NCBI GenBank assembly: GCA_009861545.1 | Contig: VXME01000040.1 | Coordinates: 162,140-226,139, forward strand | Source: Acidobacteriota bacterium | GTDB lineage: Bacteria > Acidobacteriota > Vicinamibacteria > Vicinamibacterales > UBA8438 | Length of the DNA stretch: 64,000 bases | Direction: 5' to 3' | Shown here: piece by piece, positions 10,146 to 20,326 of the stretch | Layout of the letters: each line of letters opens with the position of its first letter | Position numbering within the stretch: the first letter of the stretch is position 1 | Notes under the pieces: model-generated | The model's database searches: none | Seen by the model: the letters and a program-made list of their open reading frames with translations, nothing else | What the model was told of the DNA's origin: nothing | Made by a program: the position numbers and the translations under genes

Positions 10146-10385
10146 CTAGTGGCCGTGCGACTGGCAGTATCCACAGCCGGTGCATGCCACGGACGGCTCG
10201 ATCACGCAACGGCCGTCCGGCGGATCGTCCGGCAGCGCCGCACGAAGAAAACGAGCATGCGACGGATCGTCCGCCGGCGCCGCCGGGTCCGGCCGTGATT
10301 CGGCCGGCCGAGGCGGGGAACGGCGCTCGTCCAGATGCCGGCGGATAGCGGCCTCGACCGCGCCGCGCACGTCCGGCCGCGTCAT
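10146..10385 (-). CDS. Small Cys-rich protein with encapsulation-peptide-like N-terminus
   Basis: A 79-residue protein I do not recognise. Residues ~5-20 (VRGAVEAAIRRHLDE) form an amphipathic helix of the kind that targets cargo to bacterial microcompartments, followed by a Pro/Ala/Asp-rich linker of ~30 residues. The C-terminus holds C60, C68, C71 and C74 (CxxCxxC with an extra upstream Cys) and two His at 77 and 79, suitable for a metal or a [4Fe-4S] centre. Its ATG overlaps the stop of the third pentamer shell gene (ATGA), so it belongs to the shell operon. A redox or metal-carrying cargo is inferred; too short for most families. Confidence 0.7.
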   Translation of the reverse strand: MTRPDVRGAVEAAIRRHLDERRSPPRPAESRPDPAAPADDPSHARFLRAALPDDPPDGRCVIEPSVACTGCGYCQSHGH

Positions 10386-10705
10386 CGCGTCCCCCCGGAC
10401 GGCGCGGCATCCGCCCGCGCGGCCAACGGCTCGCCGTCGACGCGGTCCACCCGGTCGACGATCCCGACTATCGCCGTATCGGCGGGCGCTGCGGGGCGGC
10501 GAATGGCGGCCACGGCGGCACGCCCCTCCTGAACCACCAGCACATGCTCGCCGACGCCGGCCTGCGCCGCATCCACTGCCAGCAGCGGCACCCCGCTCGC
10601 TCTGCCCTCGGCATCGACCGGCTGGACGAGCAACAGCTTCGCCCCGAGCAGCTTCTCGTGCTTCTGGGTCGCCACGACGGTCCCGGTCACGCGCGCCAAC
10701 TGCAT
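10382..10705 (-). CDS. BMC pentamer-type shell protein (EutN/CcmL), third copy
   Basis: A 107-residue BMC-P vertex protein. It shares the EutN/CcmL pattern with its two neighbours: 'MQLARVTGTVVATQKHEKLLGAKLLLVQPV', then 'LLAVDAAQAGVGEHVLVVQEG' and 'AIVGIVD'. These proteins form pentamers that cap the vertices of the polyhedral shell. It has a longer C-terminal tail (~15 residues, Ala/Asp/Gly rich) than the other copies. It lies 14 bases after the second copy and overlaps the next gene by 4. Confidence 0.92.
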   Translation of the reverse strand: MQLARVTGTVVATQKHEKLLGAKLLLVQPVDAEGRASGVPLLAVDAAQAGVGEHVLVVQEGRAAVAAIRRPAAPADTAIVGIVDRVDRVDGEPLAARADAAPSGGTR

Positions 10706-10719
10706 GAATACGGCCGAGG

Positions 10720-11001
10720 TCAGGGTGACGCCTCGGGCTCCACCGTCCAGTGATCGACGATGCCGACCACGTTGGCGTCGGTCGCCACCAGGTCCGGCAG
10801 GAACGGAAACGACGCCTCGCGTCCGCGTACGAAGAACACCGTCTCCCCGGCGCCGGCGCCCGCCGAGTCGACCGCCACGAGCGGCCGGCCGGACGCCGCA
10901 CCCGCCGGCGTCATCGGCTGCAGGACGAGCAGCTTCTGGCCCTGCAGGCTGCGGTCCTTCATCGTCGAGACTACATCTCCGATGACACGGGCGAGTTGCA
11001 T
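10720..11001 (-). CDS. BMC pentamer-type shell protein (EutN/CcmL), second copy
   Basis: A 93-residue BMC-P protein: 'MQLARVIGDVVSTMKDRSL' at the start, 'KLLVLQPM', 'PLVAVDSAGAGAGETVFFVRG' and 'NVVGIVDHW' near the end. It would occupy shell vertices. Sequence differs clearly from the other two copies, especially around residues 65-75 ('ASFPFLPDL'), suggesting specialised rather than redundant pentamers. Confidence 0.92.
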   Translation of the reverse strand: MQLARVIGDVVSTMKDRSLQGQKLLVLQPMTPAGAASGRPLVAVDSAGAGAGETVFFVRGREASFPFLPDLVATDANVVGIVDHWTVEPEASP

Positions 11002-11043: not shown

Positions 11044-11322
11044 TCAGCTCCCGTCCGCGCTCACCTCGACGGAATCGACTATACCGACGATGGCGGCGTC
11101 GACCGGCGTGTCCTTCAGGTCCCCGGCCATCCGGGCGGAGCTACCGCTGACGACGAGCACGGTCTCGCCCGCGCCGGCATCGACCGTGTCCACCGCCACG
11201 ATATGGTTTCCGCGCCGGCCACCATCGGGCTCTATCGGCTGCACGAGCAGCAGCTTGTTGCTGACGAGACGCTCGTCCTTGCGCGTCGCCACCACCGTCC
11301 CGACGACCTTGGCCAGGATCAA
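11044..11322 (-). CDS. BMC pentamer-type shell protein (EutN/CcmL), first copy
   Basis: A 92-residue BMC-P protein with 'MILAKVVGTVVATRKDERL', 'KLLLVQPI', 'HIVAVDTVDAGAGETVLVVSG' and 'AAIVGIVDSV'. It begins 3 bases after the hexamer shell gene stops, so the two are tightly coupled. Three BMC-P paralogues with a single BMC-H copy is a pattern known from the planctomycete/verrucomicrobial-type fucose/rhamnose microcompartments. Confidence 0.92.
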   Translation of the reverse strand: MILAKVVGTVVATRKDERLVSNKLLLVQPIEPDGGRRGNHIVAVDTVDAGAGETVLVVSGSSARMAGDLKDTPVDAAIVGIVDSVEVSADGS

Positions 11323-11325
11323 GAC

Positions 11326-11610
11326 TTACACGCCTGCCTTGCCGATCGGGAGAGCGTCCTCCAGATTGGCATGGGGTCTCGGGATCACGTGCACGGACAC
11401 GAGTTCACCGACCCGGCGCGCGGCCGCGGCGCCGGCGTCCGTCGCGGCCTTGACCGCCGCCACGTCGCCGCGCACGATCGCCGTCACGTAGCCGGCGCCG
11501 ATCTTCTCCCAGCCTACCAGCGTGACCTTGGCGGCCTTGACCATCGCATCGGCCGCCTCGATCATCGCCACGAGACCCTTGGTCTCGACCAGCCCCAACG
11601 CTTCACCCAT
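11326..11610 (-). CDS. BMC hexamer-type shell protein (BMC-H)
   Basis: A 94-residue single-domain BMC-H protein, the expected length for CcmK/PduA/EutM relatives. It has '[24 protein letters not shown]' (seen as residues 4-27), the '[23 protein letters not shown]' fold segment and '[15 protein letters not shown]' at the end. These hexamers tile the flat facets; their central pores pass metabolites. ATG 11610 is chosen because the domain starts there; the longer frame upstream has no family similarity. It follows the aldolase by 38 bases. Confidence 0.95.
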
Positions 11611-11648: not shown

Positions 11649-12533
11649 CTACGGCGCAGGCTCCCGGTCGCGCAGACGGTTGACGGCGTCTTCGACGATG
11701 GCCGCCAGTTCGCGGTATGTTAAACGAATCTCCGTGTCCCCGTGCGCCGGCGGCGCCGCGCCGCCGGGCGCGGCCGGCACATCGTCCACGAGCTGGGCGC
11801 CCGGTGCGGACGGCGCCTCGAGCGTCTGGCACGCGGCGTCGCCGCCGGCCACGATGCCGTCGCTCCCTTCGGGGCAGATCGGGGCGGGGGCGGCGATACC
11901 GTACGTGCCCCGCAGCTCCTGCAGACGGTTGACCTCCTCGCGCGACAGCAGACGCTCGCGGCCCAGGACGCGGGCCACCACGCTGATGCGCGCGAAGTGC
12001 TCGATGGTCTCCATCTTGTAATAGGCAGGCAGCAACCCGCCGGCCACCGTGATGGCGCCGTGGTTGGCCAGCAGGAGACCGTCGTGCGCCGCGATGTGCC
12101 TGCCCACCGCGTCGGCCAGCTCCTGCGTCGACGGGGTCCCGTACTCGGCGATCGGGATGCTGCCCAGCGTAGTCACCACCTCGGCCAGCACGGCCCGATC
12201 GAGCGGGATGCCGGCCACCGCGAAGCCCGTGGCGACGGGGGGATGGGCGTGGACGACGGCCGTGACGTCGGCCCGGCGGCGGTACACGGCCAGGTGCATC
12301 GGCAGCTCGGAGGACGGATCCCGCTCGCCGGCCAGCTTGCGCCCTGCGTAGTCCGTGACCACCAGCATGTCGGGCGACATGAAGCCCTTCGACACGCTCT
12401 TCGGCGTGGTCAGCAGCCGCTCGGCGTCGAGACGCACGCTGATATTGCCGTCGTTCGAGGCGACGTAGGCGCGCTGGTGCAGGCGGCGGCCGATCTCGAC
12501 GATGTCCGCCCGCTTGGCTTCTTCGGTGGTCAT
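11649..12533 (-). CDS. Class II aldolase, L-fuculose/L-rhamnulose-phosphate type, with encapsulation tail
   Basis: A 294-residue zinc-dependent aldolase that would cleave a deoxy-ketose phosphate to dihydroxyacetone phosphate and lactaldehyde. Visible motifs are '[10 protein letters not shown]', the zinc-binding '[11 protein letters not shown]', and '[13 protein letters not shown]' with the third His. The catalytic domain ends near residue 215; a Pro/Ala/Gly-rich linker of ~55 residues then leads to a C-terminal amphipathic helix '[17 protein letters not shown]', matching the style of BMC encapsulation peptides. It is first in the shell operon, so it is the likely signature enzyme. No aldehyde dehydrogenase, PduL or sugar kinase is nearby; exact substrate is inferred. 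Confidence 0.87.
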
Positions 12534-12558: not shown

Positions 12559-12810
12559 TCAAGCCGTCTTCACGAACGACCGCCGGCATTCCTGCGAACA
12601 GAAATAGTGTGTCATCCCGCCCGCACGGATCCTGATGGCGCGCGACGGCTCGACGTAGGTGCCGCACACCGGATCCCGCACGAGTGCCACGCCGCGCTTT
12701 GCGCTGCGCGGCCGCGGACCAGCGGCTCCGGAGACCGCGCCCGCGACGAACTTCCAGATCAGACGGATGATCAGCGCCGCGAGCAGCAGACGGAGCAAGA
12801 TCCACCCCAT
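12559..12810 (-). CDS. Small membrane-anchored YHS/TRASH-domain protein
   Basis: An 83-residue protein. Residues 3-22 form one hydrophobic segment, and residues ~46-80 a YHS-type metal-binding module ('DPVCGTYVEPSRA' ... 'HYFCSQECRRSF') with four Cys positions. YHS domains often bind copper or other soft metals. It lies 40 bases after glmM and 25 bases before the BMC aldolase, bridging two otherwise distinct functional blocks. Similar small YHS proteins commonly follow glmM-type genes; its job here is unknown. Confidence 0.75.
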   Translation of the reverse strand: MGWILLRLLLAALIIRLIWKFVAGAVSGAAGPRPRSAKRGVALVRDPVCGTYVEPSRAIRIRAGGMTHYFCSQECRRSFVKTA

Positions 12811-12850
12811 GCATCGACCCCGATCCCGGCGATGATACCCCCGGGCCGGC

Positions 12851-14185
12851 TCACGCGAGCTCGCGCCGCGCGCAGGCGGCGACGCCCTCCGCAAGACTCT
12901 GCACGACACCCCGCTCCCGGCCTTCGATCATCACGCGCAGCACGGGCTCGGTCCCTGAATAGCGTACCAGCACGCGGCCGGCGCCGGCGAGGCTCGCCTC
13001 CGCGGATCGGATGGCCTCCCCGATCGCCGGCACCTCCTCGAGATTCGGCTTGCGCGCCACGCGCACGTTCAACAGCGCCTGGGGAAGGATGCGCAAGTCG
13101 CTCATCAGATCCGCGAGTTCGCACCCCGTCTCGGCAACGATCCGCAGCACGGACAGCGCCGTGCCGAGCCCGTCTCCGGTCGGCAGCAGATCCGAGAAGA
13201 TGACATGCCCCGACTGCTCGCCTCCGAGACAGACGCCGCGCCGCTCCATCTCCGCGCGTACCTGGGCGTCGCCCACCGGGCACCGGTGGAGCGCGATCCC
13301 GTACTTGCCCAGCGCCGTCTCCAGCCCGAAGTTGCTCATGACTGTCGCCACGACGCCGCCGGCCGCCAGGCGTCCCGCGCGATGCAGATGCCGGGCCGCC
13401 ACGAAGAGCACGCCGTCGCCGTCCACGATACGGCCGCGGCCGTCCACCAGGATGACCCGATCACCGTCGCCATCGAACGCGAAGCCGAGCCGGCACCGCT
13501 GCTCGAGCACCGCCGCACGCAGCCTCTCCGGATGCGTCGAACCACTGTTCTCGTTGATGTTCCGGCCATCCGGCGACGCGTGCAACTCGACGACGGGAAC
13601 GCCCAGCCGCTCCAGCACCCGGGACGCGACGCCGCTGGTCGCGCCGTGGGCGCAGTCGATGGCGATCGGCGGGCCCGCGACATCCGCACCCTCCACGATG
13701 CCGAGCAGGTGATCGACGTAGGCCTCCAGCAGATCCGCCGTGTCGAGAGGGAGCCCCGGATCGGCCGGCGCCTTGCCCCCCGCTCGGGTGCTTGCGACCC
13801 GTGCCTCGAGGCGGCGCTCCAGATCGACCGAGGCCTTCGCGCCGCTGGCCAGCAGGATCTTGATCCCGTTGTCCGGATGCCGATTGTGGGATGCGGACAC
13901 GGCGACGCCGGCATCGAACCCGTGACGCGCCGTGATGACGGCGACCCCCGGCGTGGGCACGACTCCGATGCCTACCGGCAGCCCGCCGCGCGCCCGCACC
14001 CCGGTCGCGAACCACCGCTCGACCCAGGCGCCCGAGTCCCTGGTGTCGCGCCCGCAGGCGATGCGCGGCGCTCCGCCCAGCTCCTCCGCCAAAGCCGCGC
14101 CGAGACAGGCGATCGTCACTGCGTCGAGTGGTGGCGTACCCGGTACCCCGCGCACGCCATCGGTACCGAAGAGGACGCTCGACAT
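12851..14185 (-). CDS. glmM: Phosphoglucosamine mutase GlmM
   Basis: A 444-residue enzyme converting glucosamine-6-phosphate to glucosamine-1-phosphate for UDP-GlcNAc and cell-wall synthesis. It has the N-terminal 'FGTDGVRG', the phosphoserine loop 'AVSASHN' (Ser near 99), the magnesium loop 'FDGDGDR', the sugar loop 'GGEQSGH' and the phosphate loop 'RYSGTEPVLRVM'. It sits downstream of cdaA and cdaR, the arrangement also known in Firmicutes, where CdaA interacts with and is regulated by GlmM and CdaR. Confidence 0.96.
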   Translation of the reverse strand: MSSVLFGTDGVRGVPGTPPLDAVTIACLGAALAEELGGAPRIACGRDTRDSGAWVERWFATGVRARGGLPVGIGVVPTPGVAVITARHGFDAGVAVSASHNRHPDNGIKILLASGAKASVDLERRLEARVASTRAGGKAPADPGLPLDTADLLEAYVDHLLGIVEGADVAGPPIAIDCAHGATSGVASRVLERLGVPVVELHASPDGRNINENSGSTHPERLRAAVLEQRCRLGFAFDGDGDRVILVDGRGRIVDGDGVLFVAARHLHRAGRLAAGGVVATVMSNFGLETALGKYGIALHRCPVGDAQVRAEMERRGVCLGGEQSGHVIFSDLLPTGDGLGTALSVLRIVAETGCELADLMSDLRILPQALLNVRVARKPNLEEVPAIGEAIRSAEASLAGAGRVLVRYSGTEPVLRVMIEGRERGVVQSLAEGVAACARRELA

Positions 14186-14233
14186 GAGATCCGCAGCGTT
14201 CGGGAAGGTCGCCCGCGGCCCGGCCGCGGGCAG

Positions 14234-15145
14234 TCAGGGCACGGTGACGGTCACGCGCGACGGGTCGATACGCGTCACGCCGACAGCGGGGATCGACTCC
14301 ACGGTGACGGGGAGATTGTAGCGGCCGGGCCGGAGCCCCGCAACGTCGACGAACGCTTCGACCGCCGCGCCATCGAGGGCCTGCACGCGGTCTCGCGGAC
14401 CCAGCACGTCGACGCGCACCACCGCGGGCTCGATCGAGACGGTCCGACGGCTCTCTCCCGCGCGAACCTGCACCGCGGGCAGCGTCCGCTCGAGCGGCGC
14501 GGGCACGATATCCACCGTCACCACGGCCGTCCCCGGCGTTCGGAGCCTGACCACCGGATCCGCTACGCCAACAGTGACCGTCGCCTGTACCCGGTCGGCG
14601 GCGCCTTCGATCGAAACGGGCTCGGTCAGCGCCTCGATCACGCCGGCGAGCCGGCCCGCCGGCCCCACCACCTCGAAGGTGGCCGGCAACGCGGTGACGG
14701 CGCCGATGGCGAACCCTTCCGCCGGCCGGCCCTCAATGTCCGGCACCACCCTGACCACGCGCGGTGCGCCGGCAGGCTCGAGCGACACCGCGATCGTGGC
14801 CGGCACGACCTGCACGACCTCGACGCCGAACGGAACGCGGACACGGCCCGCGAACATGTCGAACAGACGCCGGCCGGAACGCTCCCCGGCCAGGTCGATC
14901 GCGGCGACGACGTCGCCGCGCTGCAAACCGCTCACGATACTGGACGCGCCACGCACGCGCACACTGACCGTATCCGGCGGATCGCCTGCCACATGCAGGA
15001 GCGGGGGCACGTTCTCGAAACCGAGCGGCACGTCGATGCCGCGCTCGACGACCGGCTGCCCCGCCACCTGGAACCAGAACGCGACGGCAAGAGCGAACGC
15101 CAGCAGCTTGAGACCGAGATCTCGCGCGATTGCCTGTCGCAGCAT
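14234..15145 (-). CDS. cdaR: YbbR-domain protein, CdaA regulator CdaR-like
   Basis: A 303-residue protein with one N-terminal membrane anchor ('LLAFALAVAFWFQVAG') and an extracytoplasmic series of three to four YbbR repeats, each a ~75-residue beta module recognised by 'VSVRVRGASSIVSGL', 'EVVGPAGRL' and 'VDVLGPRDRV'. In Firmicutes CdaR modulates the diadenylate cyclase CdaA. Its start shares one base with the cdaA stop (TGATG), supporting co-translation. Confidence 0.88.
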   Translation of the reverse strand: MLRQAIARDLGLKLLAFALAVAFWFQVAGQPVVERGIDVPLGFENVPPLLHVAGDPPDTVSVRVRGASSIVSGLQRGDVVAAIDLAGERSGRRLFDMFAGRVRVPFGVEVVQVVPATIAVSLEPAGAPRVVRVVPDIEGRPAEGFAIGAVTALPATFEVVGPAGRLAGVIEALTEPVSIEGAADRVQATVTVGVADPVVRLRTPGTAVVTVDIVPAPLERTLPAVQVRAGESRRTVSIEPAVVRVDVLGPRDRVQALDGAAVEAFVDVAGLRPGRYNLPVTVESIPAVGVTRIDPSRVTVTVP

Positions 15146-15948
15146 CAGAATTCGCCCCCGGCCGGACGGCCCCGGCGAGCCGGCCGCACGAGCGCCTCGA
15201 GTCTGGCCGTCAGGCGGCCGGCGTCGAGGTCGCGCTCGATCTGCCCGTCGACCGCCAGAGACACGGCGCCGGTCTCCTCGGACACCACGAGCGCAACGGC
15301 GTCCGATTCCTCCGTCAACCCGATCGCGGCGCGGTGGCGGGTTCCGAGATCCGTGCTCTGGGGACTGACGGTCAGGGGCAGAAAGCAGGCGGCGGCCGCG
15401 ATTCGCTCGTCCTGAATGACTACGGCGCCGTCGTGCAGCGGCGATTCCGTCTGGAAAATGCTGACCAGCAGATCGTAGGTCACCCGCGAGTCCAGCGGAA
15501 TGCCGCTGTCGACGTAGTTCCGAAGCCCGATCGCCCGTTCGATGGCGATGAGCGCGCCGACCTTCCGGCTGGCCAGCAGTCCTGCCGCGGTGACGACCTC
15601 CTCGACCGTTTCGTCCGTGGTCGCGCGACGCGTCAGGTAGCGAAACGCGGGAGCGCGGCCGAGCCTCGACAACCCCCGGCGTATATCGGCCTGAAACAGC
15701 ACGATGGCCGCGAACACGATGTATCCGAACATGTCCCCGATGATCCAGTGCACCGTCCGGAGCATGGCGAGCTCGGACGCGTAGTAGAGCCCGACGAGGA
15801 GGACGCCGCCGAAGACCACCTGCGCCGCGCGAGTGTGCCGGATCAGCGTAAGGAGCTCATAGAAGAGGAACGTGACCACGGCGATGTCCAGCACGTCGCG
15901 CCAACCGACGCGAATGCCCAGCACGCCGCCGATGGCATCGAACACCAT
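15145..15948 (-). CDS. cdaA: Diadenylate cyclase CdaA
   Basis: A 267-residue enzyme making the second messenger c-di-AMP from two ATP. Three N-terminal transmembrane helices (residues ~15-80) precede a DAC domain with the catalytic 'HDGAVVI' (DGA) and 'GTRHRAAIG' (RHR) motifs. It forms a block with cdaR and glmM, so c-di-AMP level is probably tied to cell-wall precursor supply, as in Firmicutes. It starts 17 bases after folP. Confidence 0.95.
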   Translation of the reverse strand: MVFDAIGGVLGIRVGWRDVLDIAVVTFLFYELLTLIRHTRAAQVVFGGVLLVGLYYASELAMLRTVHWIIGDMFGYIVFAAIVLFQADIRRGLSRLGRAPAFRYLTRRATTDETVEEVVTAAGLLASRKVGALIAIERAIGLRNYVDSGIPLDSRVTYDLLVSIFQTESPLHDGAVVIQDERIAAAACFLPLTVSPQSTDLGTRHRAAIGLTEESDAVALVVSEETGAVSLAVDGQIERDLDAGRLTARLEALVRPARRGRPAGGEF

Positions 15949-15965
15949 CCTTCAGGTCTCCTGCC

Positions 15966-16874
15966 TCAGGGCGCATGCGGCGCGGCTCGCTCCGCGTGGT
16001 CGGTCCCCGCCGTGACCGCGGCCATCCGTATCGCGTCCGCCACCCGGATCACATCGCCCTGTGCGTCCACGCGGTGCGCGCGGACGATGTGCGCGCCGAA
16101 CCACACCGCGGCGGCGACGGCGGCCGCCGTCCCCCACTCCCGATCGCCCGGCGGGCGTTTCCCGAGTGCCGCCGTCAGGAACGACTTGCGGGACGGCCCG
16201 ACGAGGATCGGACGGTCCAGACGCCGCAGAGAAGGCAACGCCGCGAGCGCGGCCCACGTCGCGTCCGCCCGCTTCGCGAACCCGAGGCCCGGGTCGACCA
16301 CGATCTGCTCGCGCGGCAGCCCGGCCGCGATCGCCCGGTCGACGAGCGCGCCCAGCTCGGCGGCGACTTCGCGGCCGACGTCGCGATAAAGGGCGTGCCG
16401 GTACATGTCACGCGAGCCGCCGCGACTGTGCATGAGCACCAGCGGTGCGCCGGCGGCGGCCGCCACGCTCGCCAGCGCCGGCCCCGCAGCGAGTCCGGAG
16501 ACGTCGTTGATCATCGTCGCGCCATGATCCAGCGCGGCTTCGGCAACCTGGGCCTTGTACGTGTCGATGGAGACAGGCGCGCGCACCCGCCCGGCGAGCC
16601 GGTCGAGCACCGGCAGGACCCGCCGCATCTCCTCCTGGACGGGCACGGGCTCCGCGCCCGGCCGGGTCGATTCACCGCCGATATCGAGCAGGTCCGCCCC
16701 GGTTTCATCGAGCGCCATGGCCCGGTCCGCGGCACGCGCGGGGTCCAGAAACTCGCCGCCGTCCGCGAACGAGTCCGGCGTGATGTTGACGATGCCCATC
16801 ACCAGCGTGCGCGCCCCCAGCTCCAGCGTGCGCCCCCCCGGCAGCGAGAGCGTGTACGGCTTCCGTGGGGTCAT
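15966..16874 (-). CDS. folP: Dihydropteroate synthase FolP
   Basis: A 302-residue enzyme of folate synthesis that joins p-aminobenzoate to dihydropterin pyrophosphate. It has 'MGIVNITPDSFADGG' (pterin pyrophosphate binding), 'DIGGESTRPGA', 'SIDTYKAQVAEAALDHGA', 'INDVSG' and 'DPGLGFAKR'. It lies between ftsH and cdaA, a frequent order in several phyla. Length is slightly above the usual 270-285 because of N- and C-terminal extensions. Confidence 0.95.
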   Translation of the reverse strand: MTPRKPYTLSLPGGRTLELGARTLVMGIVNITPDSFADGGEFLDPARAADRAMALDETGADLLDIGGESTRPGAEPVPVQEEMRRVLPVLDRLAGRVRAPVSIDTYKAQVAEAALDHGATMINDVSGLAAGPALASVAAAAGAPLVLMHSRGGSRDMYRHALYRDVGREVAAELGALVDRAIAAGLPREQIVVDPGLGFAKRADATWAALAALPSLRRLDRPILVGPSRKSFLTAALGKRPPGDREWGTAAAVAAAVWFGAHIVRAHRVDAQGDVIRVADAIRMAAVTAGTDHAERAAPHAP

Positions 16875-16955
16875 GTTCGTTCCGAAACGACCGACAGTCT
16901 CCGGCCCGGCCCGCCGACGGCGCCGGGGCGGTGACGGCCGGTCGGGATCGAACCC

Positions 16956-18877
<1,922 letters not shown>

Positions 18878-18881
<4 letters not shown>

Positions 18882-20326
18882 ACGGAACCTCCCGTCTTCA
18901 CGATCTTCAAGACTATCACGCCTTCGTCCGAGCCGATCATTCTCGCTCCCTCCCCCAACCCGTGCCCCGCGACCCACACGATCCCGAGCCGGTCGTCCAC
19001 CACCAGTGGAACGGTCGCGCGCCGGTCGCGGGGGACCTTGCGATCCACGAAGAAGTCCTGCACCTTCTTCCTGCGCCCGCCGAGCCCGAGGGGCCGGAAC
19101 ACGTCGCCGGGACGCCAGCTCCGCACCGTCAGCGGCAAGGTGATCCGCGCCGCCGGCAGCGCGACGACGCCGCCGCGCGCGACGAGCCGGGCCGGCCGGC
19201 CGCCGTGCTCGGCGGTGATGCGGAGACCGGCCTCGGAGATCTCCACCGCGCCGGGCGCCGCCAGCGGATACTCGTAGCCCTCGGCGCCGGCAACGGGCGC
19301 CCGCCGCCCCCGCCGGCGCGTGAAGCCCAGCATCGTTCCCCGCCGCTCGACCCGGCAGCCGGGGAAATCCGCCGCAACCGGCGCCGTCCCCTCCGCTTCC
19401 GCCAACCGCCGCAGGCGCTCCACGTGATCGAAGCCGACCCGCCGGCCGCCGGCCCGCTCCAGGACCTGCAGGGCGACCCGCCGAGCCAGCGCCGGGTGGG
19501 CCGCCGCCAGTCGCGCCGCGTCGATCTCAAGGCGCCCCCCTGCGACGTCTCCCCCCGCGTCGAGGGGCCCCTCCTTGTATTGGACGATCTCTCGCGCCGC
19601 CGCGTTCGCCGCGTCGTCCAGCCAGTCGGCGTCGTCGCGGGCGATCGCCGCGCCGCGGGCGAGAGCGTCCGTAACGGCCGGCGAGAAGTGCTCGGCGAGG
19701 AACGGGATTAGCCGGTGCCGAACCCGGTTGCGCAAGATGCGCTCGTCGCGGTTGCTCGGATCCTCGCGATGCGGCAGGCCGCGCAGGCGCAGGTAGCCCC
19801 GGAGCTCGTCCCGGCGGATGTCGAGCAGGGGCCGCACGACGGCGCCGATGCGGGGTCGGATGCCCGCCAGTCCGGCCGGCCCGGCGCCGCGGATCAGCCG
19901 CAACAGCACCGTCTCGGCCTGATCGTCGCGGGTGTGTGCGGTCGCCACGCGGTCGGCCTGCCCGGCCCGCACCGCGCGCGCGAACAGCTCGTAGCGAACC
20001 CGGTGTCCCGCCGCCTCGATGGAGATCCGCTCCGCACCCGCGCGGGCGGCCACGTCGACGCGCTCGACGGTGATGGGGACCCCGAGCGTGGCGGCGAGGT
20101 CGCGGCAGAACGTCTCGTCCTCGTCGGATGCCCCCCCCCGCAACCGGTGGTTGACGTGCAGCAGCCCGGCAACCGACCAGCTCGCAGCGGGCGCCAGTTC
20201 GCACAGGAGGGCGCCGAGCGCCACCGAGTCGCCGCCGCCGGAGCAGGCCACGAGCACGCGCGCGCCCGATGGAATGAGCGCCTCGCGCTCGAGGGATTGC
20301 CGGACGCGCTGCACCAGCGGTGACAC
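18878..20326 (-). CDS. tilS: tRNA(Ile)-lysidine synthetase TilS
   Basis: A 482-residue enzyme that converts the wobble C of tRNA-Ile(CAU) to lysidine, changing its identity from Met to Ile. It has the PP-loop '[13 protein letters not shown]' near residue 25, '[16 protein letters not shown]', '[21 protein letters not shown]', '[12 protein letters not shown]'-like sequence and the C-terminal TilS domains ending near the zinc-free substrate-binding module. GTG 20326 is chosen because the preceding ~90 in-frame residues are antisense to the neighbouring gene. It overlaps ftsH by 4 bases. A tRNA with CAU anticodon lies 1.5 kb away. Confidence 0.92.

What the first reader, a model, noticed from the sequence alone, without database searches (positions are those of the whole stretch)
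10146..10385. A 79-residue candidate BMC cargo with a targeting helix and a Cys cluster
Seen: an N-terminal VRGAVEAAIRRHLDE helix, a disordered linker, then C60, CxxCxxC (68-74) and two His, with its start overlapping the last shell gene. Inference: a shell-targeted metal or Fe-S protein, perhaps moving electrons through or inside the compartment. I know no named family with this layout.
Basis: partly seen in the sequence, partly recalled or inferred. Interest (0 to 1): 0.75.

Follow-up and report, generated by a model that had tools for sequence, protein, structure and literature searches.

The report
Conserved Cys-tailed bacterial-microcompartment companion protein
A tiny, previously unnamed protein, encoded right behind the shell genes of a protein-walled bacterial organelle in Acidobacteriota, carries a helix that probably sends it inside the organelle and a nearly unchanging cysteine-rich tail that probably holds a metal; it is a real gene family found across the phylum, but what the tail does is not yet known.

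Summary
The 79-residue ORF is a real gene. It overlaps the third BMC-P gene by 4 nt, has dN/dS 0.23, and has homologues in 33 of 60 related genomes and 89 of 396 sampled Acidobacteriota genomes. 86 of those 89 also encode BMC-P. Of 79 homologue loci inspected, 75 lie directly behind BMC-P genes; two sit at contig edges and two have moved about 28 kb. The locus fits the published "ACI" microcompartment type (class II aldolase with C-terminal encapsulation peptide, BMC-H, BMC-P triplet, satellite acylating aldehyde dehydrogenase). The N-terminal helix aligns in register with the aldolase's encapsulation peptide. The linker is disordered and variable. The last 20 residues are hyperconserved: C60, E63, C68, C74 and G78 are invariant, and the protein ends at G-H/F/Y. 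C71 of the CxxCxxC is Ser/Thr in about 12% of tails, so a strict four-Cys ferredoxin-like cluster is unlikely. No Pfam or NCBIfam family matches. Deeper lineages carry the same tail on longer proteins, one related to TIGR02536 (eut operons). Best reading: a lumen-targeted accessory cargo with a metal-thiolate tail serving the aldehyde-processing core. Metal identity and electron transfer are inference.

The parts
10146..10385 (-). 79-aa accessory protein gene (start 10385, stop 10148-10146)
   Evidence: dN/dS 0.23; homologues
10320..10379 (-). encapsulation-peptide-like helix, residues 3-22 (family consensus MTDDELRALVRDAIARHLG)
   Evidence: AlphaFold2 helix 3-22, pLDDT about 94; alignments A1, A4; in-register similarity to the aldolase C-terminal EP
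10209..10319 (-). variable, disordered Pro/Ala-rich linker, residues 23-59, with a weakly conserved 'H-P/A-S-H' patch (DPSH, residues 40-43, in the window)
   Evidence: pLDDT 51-64; alignments
10149..10208 (-). hyperconserved C-terminal Cys tail, residues 60-79: C60-x2-E63-x4-C68-x2-C71-x2-C74-x3-G78-H79-COOH
   Evidence: C60, E63, C68, C74, G78 invariant in A1 (30 seqs) and A2 (29 phylum-wide seqs); 101 distinct tails
10382..10705 (-). third BMC-P (EutN/CcmL) shell gene; overlaps the small gene by 4 nt
   Evidence: PF03319 1.4e-27
10720..11001 (-). second BMC-P shell gene
   Evidence: PF03319 1.2e-25
11044..11322 (-). first BMC-P shell gene
   Evidence: PF03319 1.1e-31
11326..11610 (-). BMC-H (EutM-like) shell gene; carries AMVKAA and [10 protein letters not shown], the EP-groove residues described for PduA
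   Evidence: PF00936 1.3e-29; groove motifs in 28 and 25 of 28 loci; PduA groove from PMC11157265
11649..12533 (-). class II aldolase with a C-terminal encapsulation peptide ([22 protein letters not shown], about 11652-11732) and Cys in the preceding linker (C220, C235; about 11829-11876)
   Evidence: PF00596 1.7e-44; C-terminal extensions

Best explanation
The gene encodes an accessory cargo protein of the ACI-type bacterial microcompartment. Step 1 (well supported by gene order and the 4-nt overlap): it is made together with the last pentamer protein. Step 2 (strongly suggested by sequence, not shown by experiment): its N-terminal amphipathic helix is an encapsulation peptide that binds the luminal groove between BMC-H hexamers and/or bundles with the aldolase's own C-terminal peptide, placing the protein in the lumen on a flexible linker. 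Step 3 (inferred): the 20-residue C-terminal tail folds around a metal held by the three invariant cysteines, with Glu63 or residue 71 as a possible fourth ligand. Step 4 (inferred, least certain): the tail, whose exact C-terminus is conserved, docks on a core partner (the class II aldolase, whose own linker has conserved Cys, or the acylating aldehyde dehydrogenase) and organises the core or supplies it with a metal or redox centre. I put about 0.85 on lumen targeting, 0.6 on metal binding, 0.35 on a docking/structural role for the tail and 0.25 on electron transfer.
For: Real, constrained gene. It lies directly behind the BMC-P genes in 75 of 79 inspected loci, and in 86 of 89 family-positive genomes the genome encodes BMC-P (Fisher p about 1e-36, not corrected for relatedness). 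The locus content matches the ACI type of PMC8217296, and the satellite acylating AldDh plus a second BMC-H was found in the same genome. The N-terminal helix has pLDDT about 94 and the linker about 51-64. The helix aligns in register with the aldolase EP: summed score 456 against a maximum of 293 in 400 shuffles. BMC-H carries the PduA-type EP groove. C60, E63, C68, C74, G78 and the C-terminal end position are conserved across the phylum, although the upstream part varies from a short linker to a longer domain.
Against: No metal assay or localisation can be done here. The window's own helix scores only modestly against its aldolase EP (10.7% of shuffles as good), and its hydrophobic moment is not exceptional. 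C71 varies. The tail has no detectable homology to any known metal-binding family; the best Fe-S hit is Fer4_2 at E 0.96. 17 genomes of the same family keep BMC-P genes without a detectable small gene, so it is dispensable for the compartment. A few diverged members lack an obvious EP.
Confidence: 0.6

Rival explanations
1. Lumenal Fe-S electron carrier: the tail ligates an Fe-S cluster and passes electrons between lumen dehydrogenases and the shell or cytosol, as proposed for PduS/PduT/GrpU.
For: Four Cys in 89 of 101 distinct tails. No alcohol dehydrogenase gene was recognised near the aldolase in the loci compared, so NAD+ regeneration inside is open. GRM/PDU compartments have accessory Fe-S proteins (PMC6325248).
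Against: C71 is Ser/Thr in several lineages. No significant Fe-S family hit. The best PDB profile resemblance is to the structural-zinc lobe of medium-chain alcohol dehydrogenases, and it is weak (E 0.12).
Confidence: 0.25
2. Zn-knuckle or thiol-bridge assembly adaptor: the tail and the aldolase's Cys linker form a zinc or disulfide joint that cross-links the enzyme core before the shell closes.
For: The ACI aldolases carry conserved Cys between catalytic domain and EP ('RCQACGYL...C', 'CxxCP', 'PAPICP...CQ'). CxxCGY-type knuckles and the weak similarity to the MDR structural-zinc lobe.
Against: Aldolase Cys persist in genera that lack the small protein. Direct contact between the two is untested.
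Confidence: 0.3
3. Degenerate remnant of a larger accessory protein (TIGR02536-like) kept mainly as an EP-bearing filler, with a tail of no catalytic use.
For: A longer homologue matches TIGR02536 over its N-terminal ~155 residues (L169, 2.3e-9), and short forms lack that domain. The gene is absent in 17 genomes of the same family.
Against: The tail is the most conserved part of the protein across the phylum and dN/dS is 0.23; a remnant would lose it first.
Confidence: 0.1
4. Not a protein-coding gene (chance ORF in a GC-rich genome).
For: Several overlapping ORFs exist in other frames.
Against: Homologues, dN/dS, conserved position and C-terminus.
Confidence: 0.01

Closest known systems
ACI bacterial microcompartment type (Sutter et al. 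2021, PMC8217296)
   Same: Class II aldolase with C-terminal EP, BMC-P triplet, BMC-H, hydroxyacid dehydrogenase in many loci, AldDh on a satellite locus; Acidobacteria only. The paper mentions 'several proteins of unknown function' in the locus; this is probably one of them.
   Different: The main text does not describe this protein, its EP or its Cys tail. Supplementary locus diagrams and HMMs could not be read here, so an unnamed HMM for it may exist there. The window's own locus lacks the adjacent hydroxyacid dehydrogenase.
TIGR02536 family (eut-operon protein of unknown function)
   Same: Long-form relatives carrying the same tail match its N-terminal part (L169 E 2.3e-9 over ~155 positions; L191-type E 0.03).
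   Different: The window protein has no match. The Cys tail lies outside the matched region.
PduS / PduT / GrpU accessory Fe-S proteins
   Same: Microcompartment accessory proteins with Cys-bound redox centres (PMC6325248).
   Different: PduT and GrpU are shell (BMC-domain) proteins and PduS is a multidomain flavoenzyme; this is 79 aa with none of those domains.
EP-bearing adaptor CcmN of beta-carboxysomes
   Same: Non-enzymatic accessory protein with a terminal EP on a flexible linker (PMC12339742).
   Different: CcmN's EP is C-terminal and CcmN has no such Cys tail (own knowledge).
Structural-zinc lobe of medium-chain alcohol dehydrogenases (5vm2, 1e3j)
   Same: IEPxVxCxxCxYC stretch found by profile search (E 0.12-0.75).
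   Different: Not significant. The fourth Cys is on the other side and there is no dehydrogenase fold; most likely analogy.

Membership tests
EP-bearing cargo of a bacterial microcompartment | Terminal amphipathic helix of about 15-20 residues joined by a disordered linker | tested here: met
   Helix 3-22 at pLDDT 94, linker 51-64; in-register match to the aldolase EP at group level. Hydrophobic moment of the window helix alone unremarkable.
EP-bearing cargo of a bacterial microcompartment | Encoded with shell genes | tested here: met
EP-bearing cargo of a bacterial microcompartment | Found inside the compartment | not testable with these tools
   Needs localisation or shell co-purification.
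ACI microcompartment locus | pfam00596 aldolase with C-terminal EP, BMC-P triplet, BMC-H, satellite AldDh | tested here: met
   definition from PMC8217296.
ACI microcompartment locus | Hydroxyacid dehydrogenase in the locus | tested here: not met
   In the window, Vut_1 and QueC follow instead; the gene is present in 18 of the 32 loci first compared. Elsewhere in the genome not searched.
Four-Cys [4Fe-4S] ferredoxin-like protein | Four invariant Cys ligands | tested here: not met
   C71 is Ser/Thr in 12 of 101 distinct tails; A2 invariant Cys are C60, C68, C74 only.
Four-Cys [4Fe-4S] ferredoxin-like protein | Significant match to an Fe-S family | tested here: not met
   Fer4_2 E 0.96, below cut-off; none in NCBIfam.
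TIGR02536 | Match over the family cut-off | tested here: not met
   Window protein no match; long-form relative 37 bits against cut-off 152.6.
Metal-binding protein | Bound metal | not testable with these tools
   Inferred from C60, E63, C68, C74 only.

The most novel reading that the evidence does not exclude
A phylum-wide, previously unnamed family of lumen-targeted metal-thiolate (possibly three-Cys Fe-S or Zn) cofactor carriers that serve Acidobacteriota microcompartments, with one conserved 20-residue C-terminal module attached to different upstream parts, working where PduS/PduT-type redox proteins work in other compartments.
Probability: 0.25. Interest if true: 0.8.

Novelty: new variant of a known kind. 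Interest (0 to 1): 0.55.

Why it matters
How microcompartments handle electrons and metals across their shell is an open question, and the ACI compartment has no assigned substrate. This family gives a small, expressible handle found in about half of the sampled Acidobacteriota genomes that encode BMC-P (86 of 164). Its three invariant cysteines make metal binding and function directly testable, and its encapsulation peptide predicts where it sits. The shared tail on short and long forms also suggests a reusable C-terminal module.

Tried and rejected
Close-relative search with the single protein in genome contigs found nothing; an alignment was needed. Pfam, NCBIfam and PDB searches gave no family. 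Two profile hits (L176, L177) were medium-chain alcohol dehydrogenases and were discarded as false. G294 and G402 looked like family members without a microcompartment, but both genomes have the BMC-P triplet about 28 kb away. TIGR02536 search in the phylum mostly hit profile positions 150-206 in much longer frames, not the tail proteins. Long-form relative against plasmid records: none. The hydrophobic moment did not separate the helix from shuffles. Loss of aldolase Cys together with loss of the small protein was looked for and not seen.

Full report
What is there. The stretch 10146-10385 encodes the described 79-residue protein, on the minus strand. Its ATG (10385) overlaps the stop codon of the third BMC-P gene by four bases (10382-10385), with a GGGGGGA stretch a few bases upstream (sequence), as in translationally coupled genes. 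Upstream on the same strand are a class II aldolase (12533-11649), one BMC-H and three BMC-P genes (Pfam E 1e-25 to 2e-44). Downstream are a Vut_1 transporter and QueC. The gene is single-copy in its 6.35-Mb genome. Between the window gene and its 89%-identical homologue in the same genus, dN/dS is 0.23 in this frame; the other five frames show no such excess of synonymous over replacement change, except a weak one in one antisense frame.

The family. With the window protein as query, 32 of 60 genomes (own and related) have a clear homologue and one more (G011) is cut by an assembly gap. A pattern scan of 84,980 genomes for the tail plus tblastn confirmation gave 49 loci, nearly all named as Acidobacteria or Vicinamibacterales. 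The two named Acidimicrobiia were not checked further and may be misnamed MAGs. A profile of 30 members (A1) then found diverged members in other families and classes of the phylum. A wider profile (A2) finds 89 of 396 evenly drawn Acidobacteriota genomes. In the same 396 genomes BMC-P (PF03319) is found in 164. 86 of the 89 have both; the exceptions are G185 (67% complete, gene at a contig edge) and two hits at E about 0.005. The Fisher test gives p about 1e-36, without correction for shared ancestry.

Position. Of 79 loci read (32, 28, 19), the gene lies directly behind BMC-P genes in 75. Two are at contig edges (G034, where the gene is split between two contigs and its first half follows BMC-P on the other contig; and G185), and two (G294, G402) sit behind PdxJ with the BMC-P triplet about 28 kb away on the same contig. 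The reverse does not hold. In 17 genomes of the window's own family BMC-P genes are kept but the last BMC-P is followed directly by a 2-hydroxyacid dehydrogenase or, where a contig ends early, no small gene is detected; six genomes of two other families have loci of a different make-up, in several of which an aldehyde dehydrogenase follows BMC-P. So the protein is dispensable in some lineages.

Which microcompartment. Sutter et al. (PMC8217296) describe the ACI type: pfam00596 aldolase with a C-terminal encapsulation peptide, hydroxyacid dehydrogenase, BMC-P triplet, at least one BMC-H, several proteins of unknown function, and an AldDh consistently on a satellite locus. The window fits except that the hydroxyacid dehydrogenase is not adjacent. 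The satellite is in the same genome: an acylating aldehyde dehydrogenase (TIGR02518, 574 bits against a cut-off of 620) next to a second BMC-H. The authors clustered unannotated locus proteins into HMMs, so this protein may already have an unnamed HMM in their supplement, which could not be opened.

N-terminal helix. AlphaFold2 on an alignment of 33 window and the search for related loci sequences gives a helix 3-22 at pLDDT about 94 and a linker at 51-64. The family consensus MTDDELRALVRDAIARHLG lines up in register with the C-terminal peptide of the ACI aldolases, [21 protein letters not shown]: over 21 genomes the summed BLOSUM62 score is 456, against at most 293 in 400 composition-preserving shuffles; the window pair alone is weak (10.7% of shuffles as good; genomes are not independent). 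The BMC-H proteins carry AMVK[AS]A (28 of 28) and [10 protein letters not shown] (25 of 28), the two stretches that form the EP groove between tessellating PduA hexamers (PMC11157265). Lumen targeting is thus well supported by sequence and unproved by experiment.

C-terminal tail. C60, E63, C68, C74 and G78 are invariant in A1 and in the phylum-wide A2; the protein ends exactly at G-H/F/Y in all 101 distinct tails collected, though the collecting pattern required this and the C, E and G positions. C71, the middle of the CxxCxxC, is Cys in 89 and Ser or Thr in 12 tails from several families. A conventional four-Cys [4Fe-4S] or Zn-C4 site would not be expected to tolerate this repeatedly, so a site with three Cys plus Glu63, Ser/Cys71 or an open position is more likely. 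No Fe-S family matches (Fer4_2 E 0.96). The best PDB resemblance is the structural-zinc lobe of medium-chain alcohol dehydrogenases at E 0.12, which I treat as analogy. AlphaFold2 gives the tail only moderate confidence (65-77), and coordinates could not be measured.

Long forms. In families f19, f44, f77 and f84 the same tail ends a protein of about 126-240 residues. One of them (L169) matches TIGR02536, a protein of ethanolamine-utilisation operons, at 2.3e-9 over its N-terminal 155 residues, and another at 0.03. The window protein has no such match. The short form may therefore be a reduced version of an EP-domain-tail protein, or the tail a module that was joined to different partners; the direction was not tested with a tree.

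Mechanism. I commit to a lumen-targeted accessory cargo whose tail forms a metal-thiolate module that docks on the aldehyde-processing core. Two observations bear on the partner without settling it: ACI aldolases have conserved Cys in the linker before their EP (for example RCQACGYL...C), but these persist where the small protein is absent; and no alcohol dehydrogenase was recognised in the loci compared, so how NAD+ is regenerated in the lumen is open, which keeps an electron-transfer role alive. Shown: gene reality, family, linkage, conserved residues. Strongly suggested: encapsulation. Inferred: metal binding, docking, redox.

Verdict. The Fe-S electron-carrier claim is possible but not favoured by the variable fourth cysteine.

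Noticed in passing
window 11829-11876 (aldolase C220, C235) and aldolases in L156-L202: The ACI class II aldolase has conserved Cys in the linker between catalytic domain and encapsulation peptide (CQACGYL..C, CxxCP, or PAPICP..CQ by lineage), also where the small protein is missing.
   Followed up: partly
window 12559-12909 (-): A short protein with a likely membrane stretch and a YHS-like domain (PF04945, just below cut-off) lies next to the aldolase gene; its relatives are found in 18 of 32 loci compared.
   Followed up: no
window 12851-18977 (-): The compartment operon sits in a conserved neighbourhood that looks like FtsH-FolP-DisA-YbbR-GlmM upstream and QueC/endonuclease III downstream across the order (names by sequence recognition, only partly profile-checked).
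   Followed up: partly
L119 5998-7767 (-), satellite locus in the same genome: The satellite acylating aldehyde dehydrogenase has a C-terminal extension with a possible internal EP and a 'EDVRAAIRESRPIVIGERTIVTPAARDLA' segment; many TIGR02536 hits cover only profile positions 150-206 inside frames of 500-680 aa, possibly the same segment.
   Followed up: no
L089, L101: Two homologous loci come from MAGs titled Acidimicrobiia bacterium; their sequences look like the Vicinamibacterales ones, so the titles may be wrong.
   Followed up: no
L138, L139, L140, L141: In two other families of the order a BMC-P gene is followed directly by an aldehyde dehydrogenase, a different compartment type without the Cys-tail protein.
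   Followed up: partly
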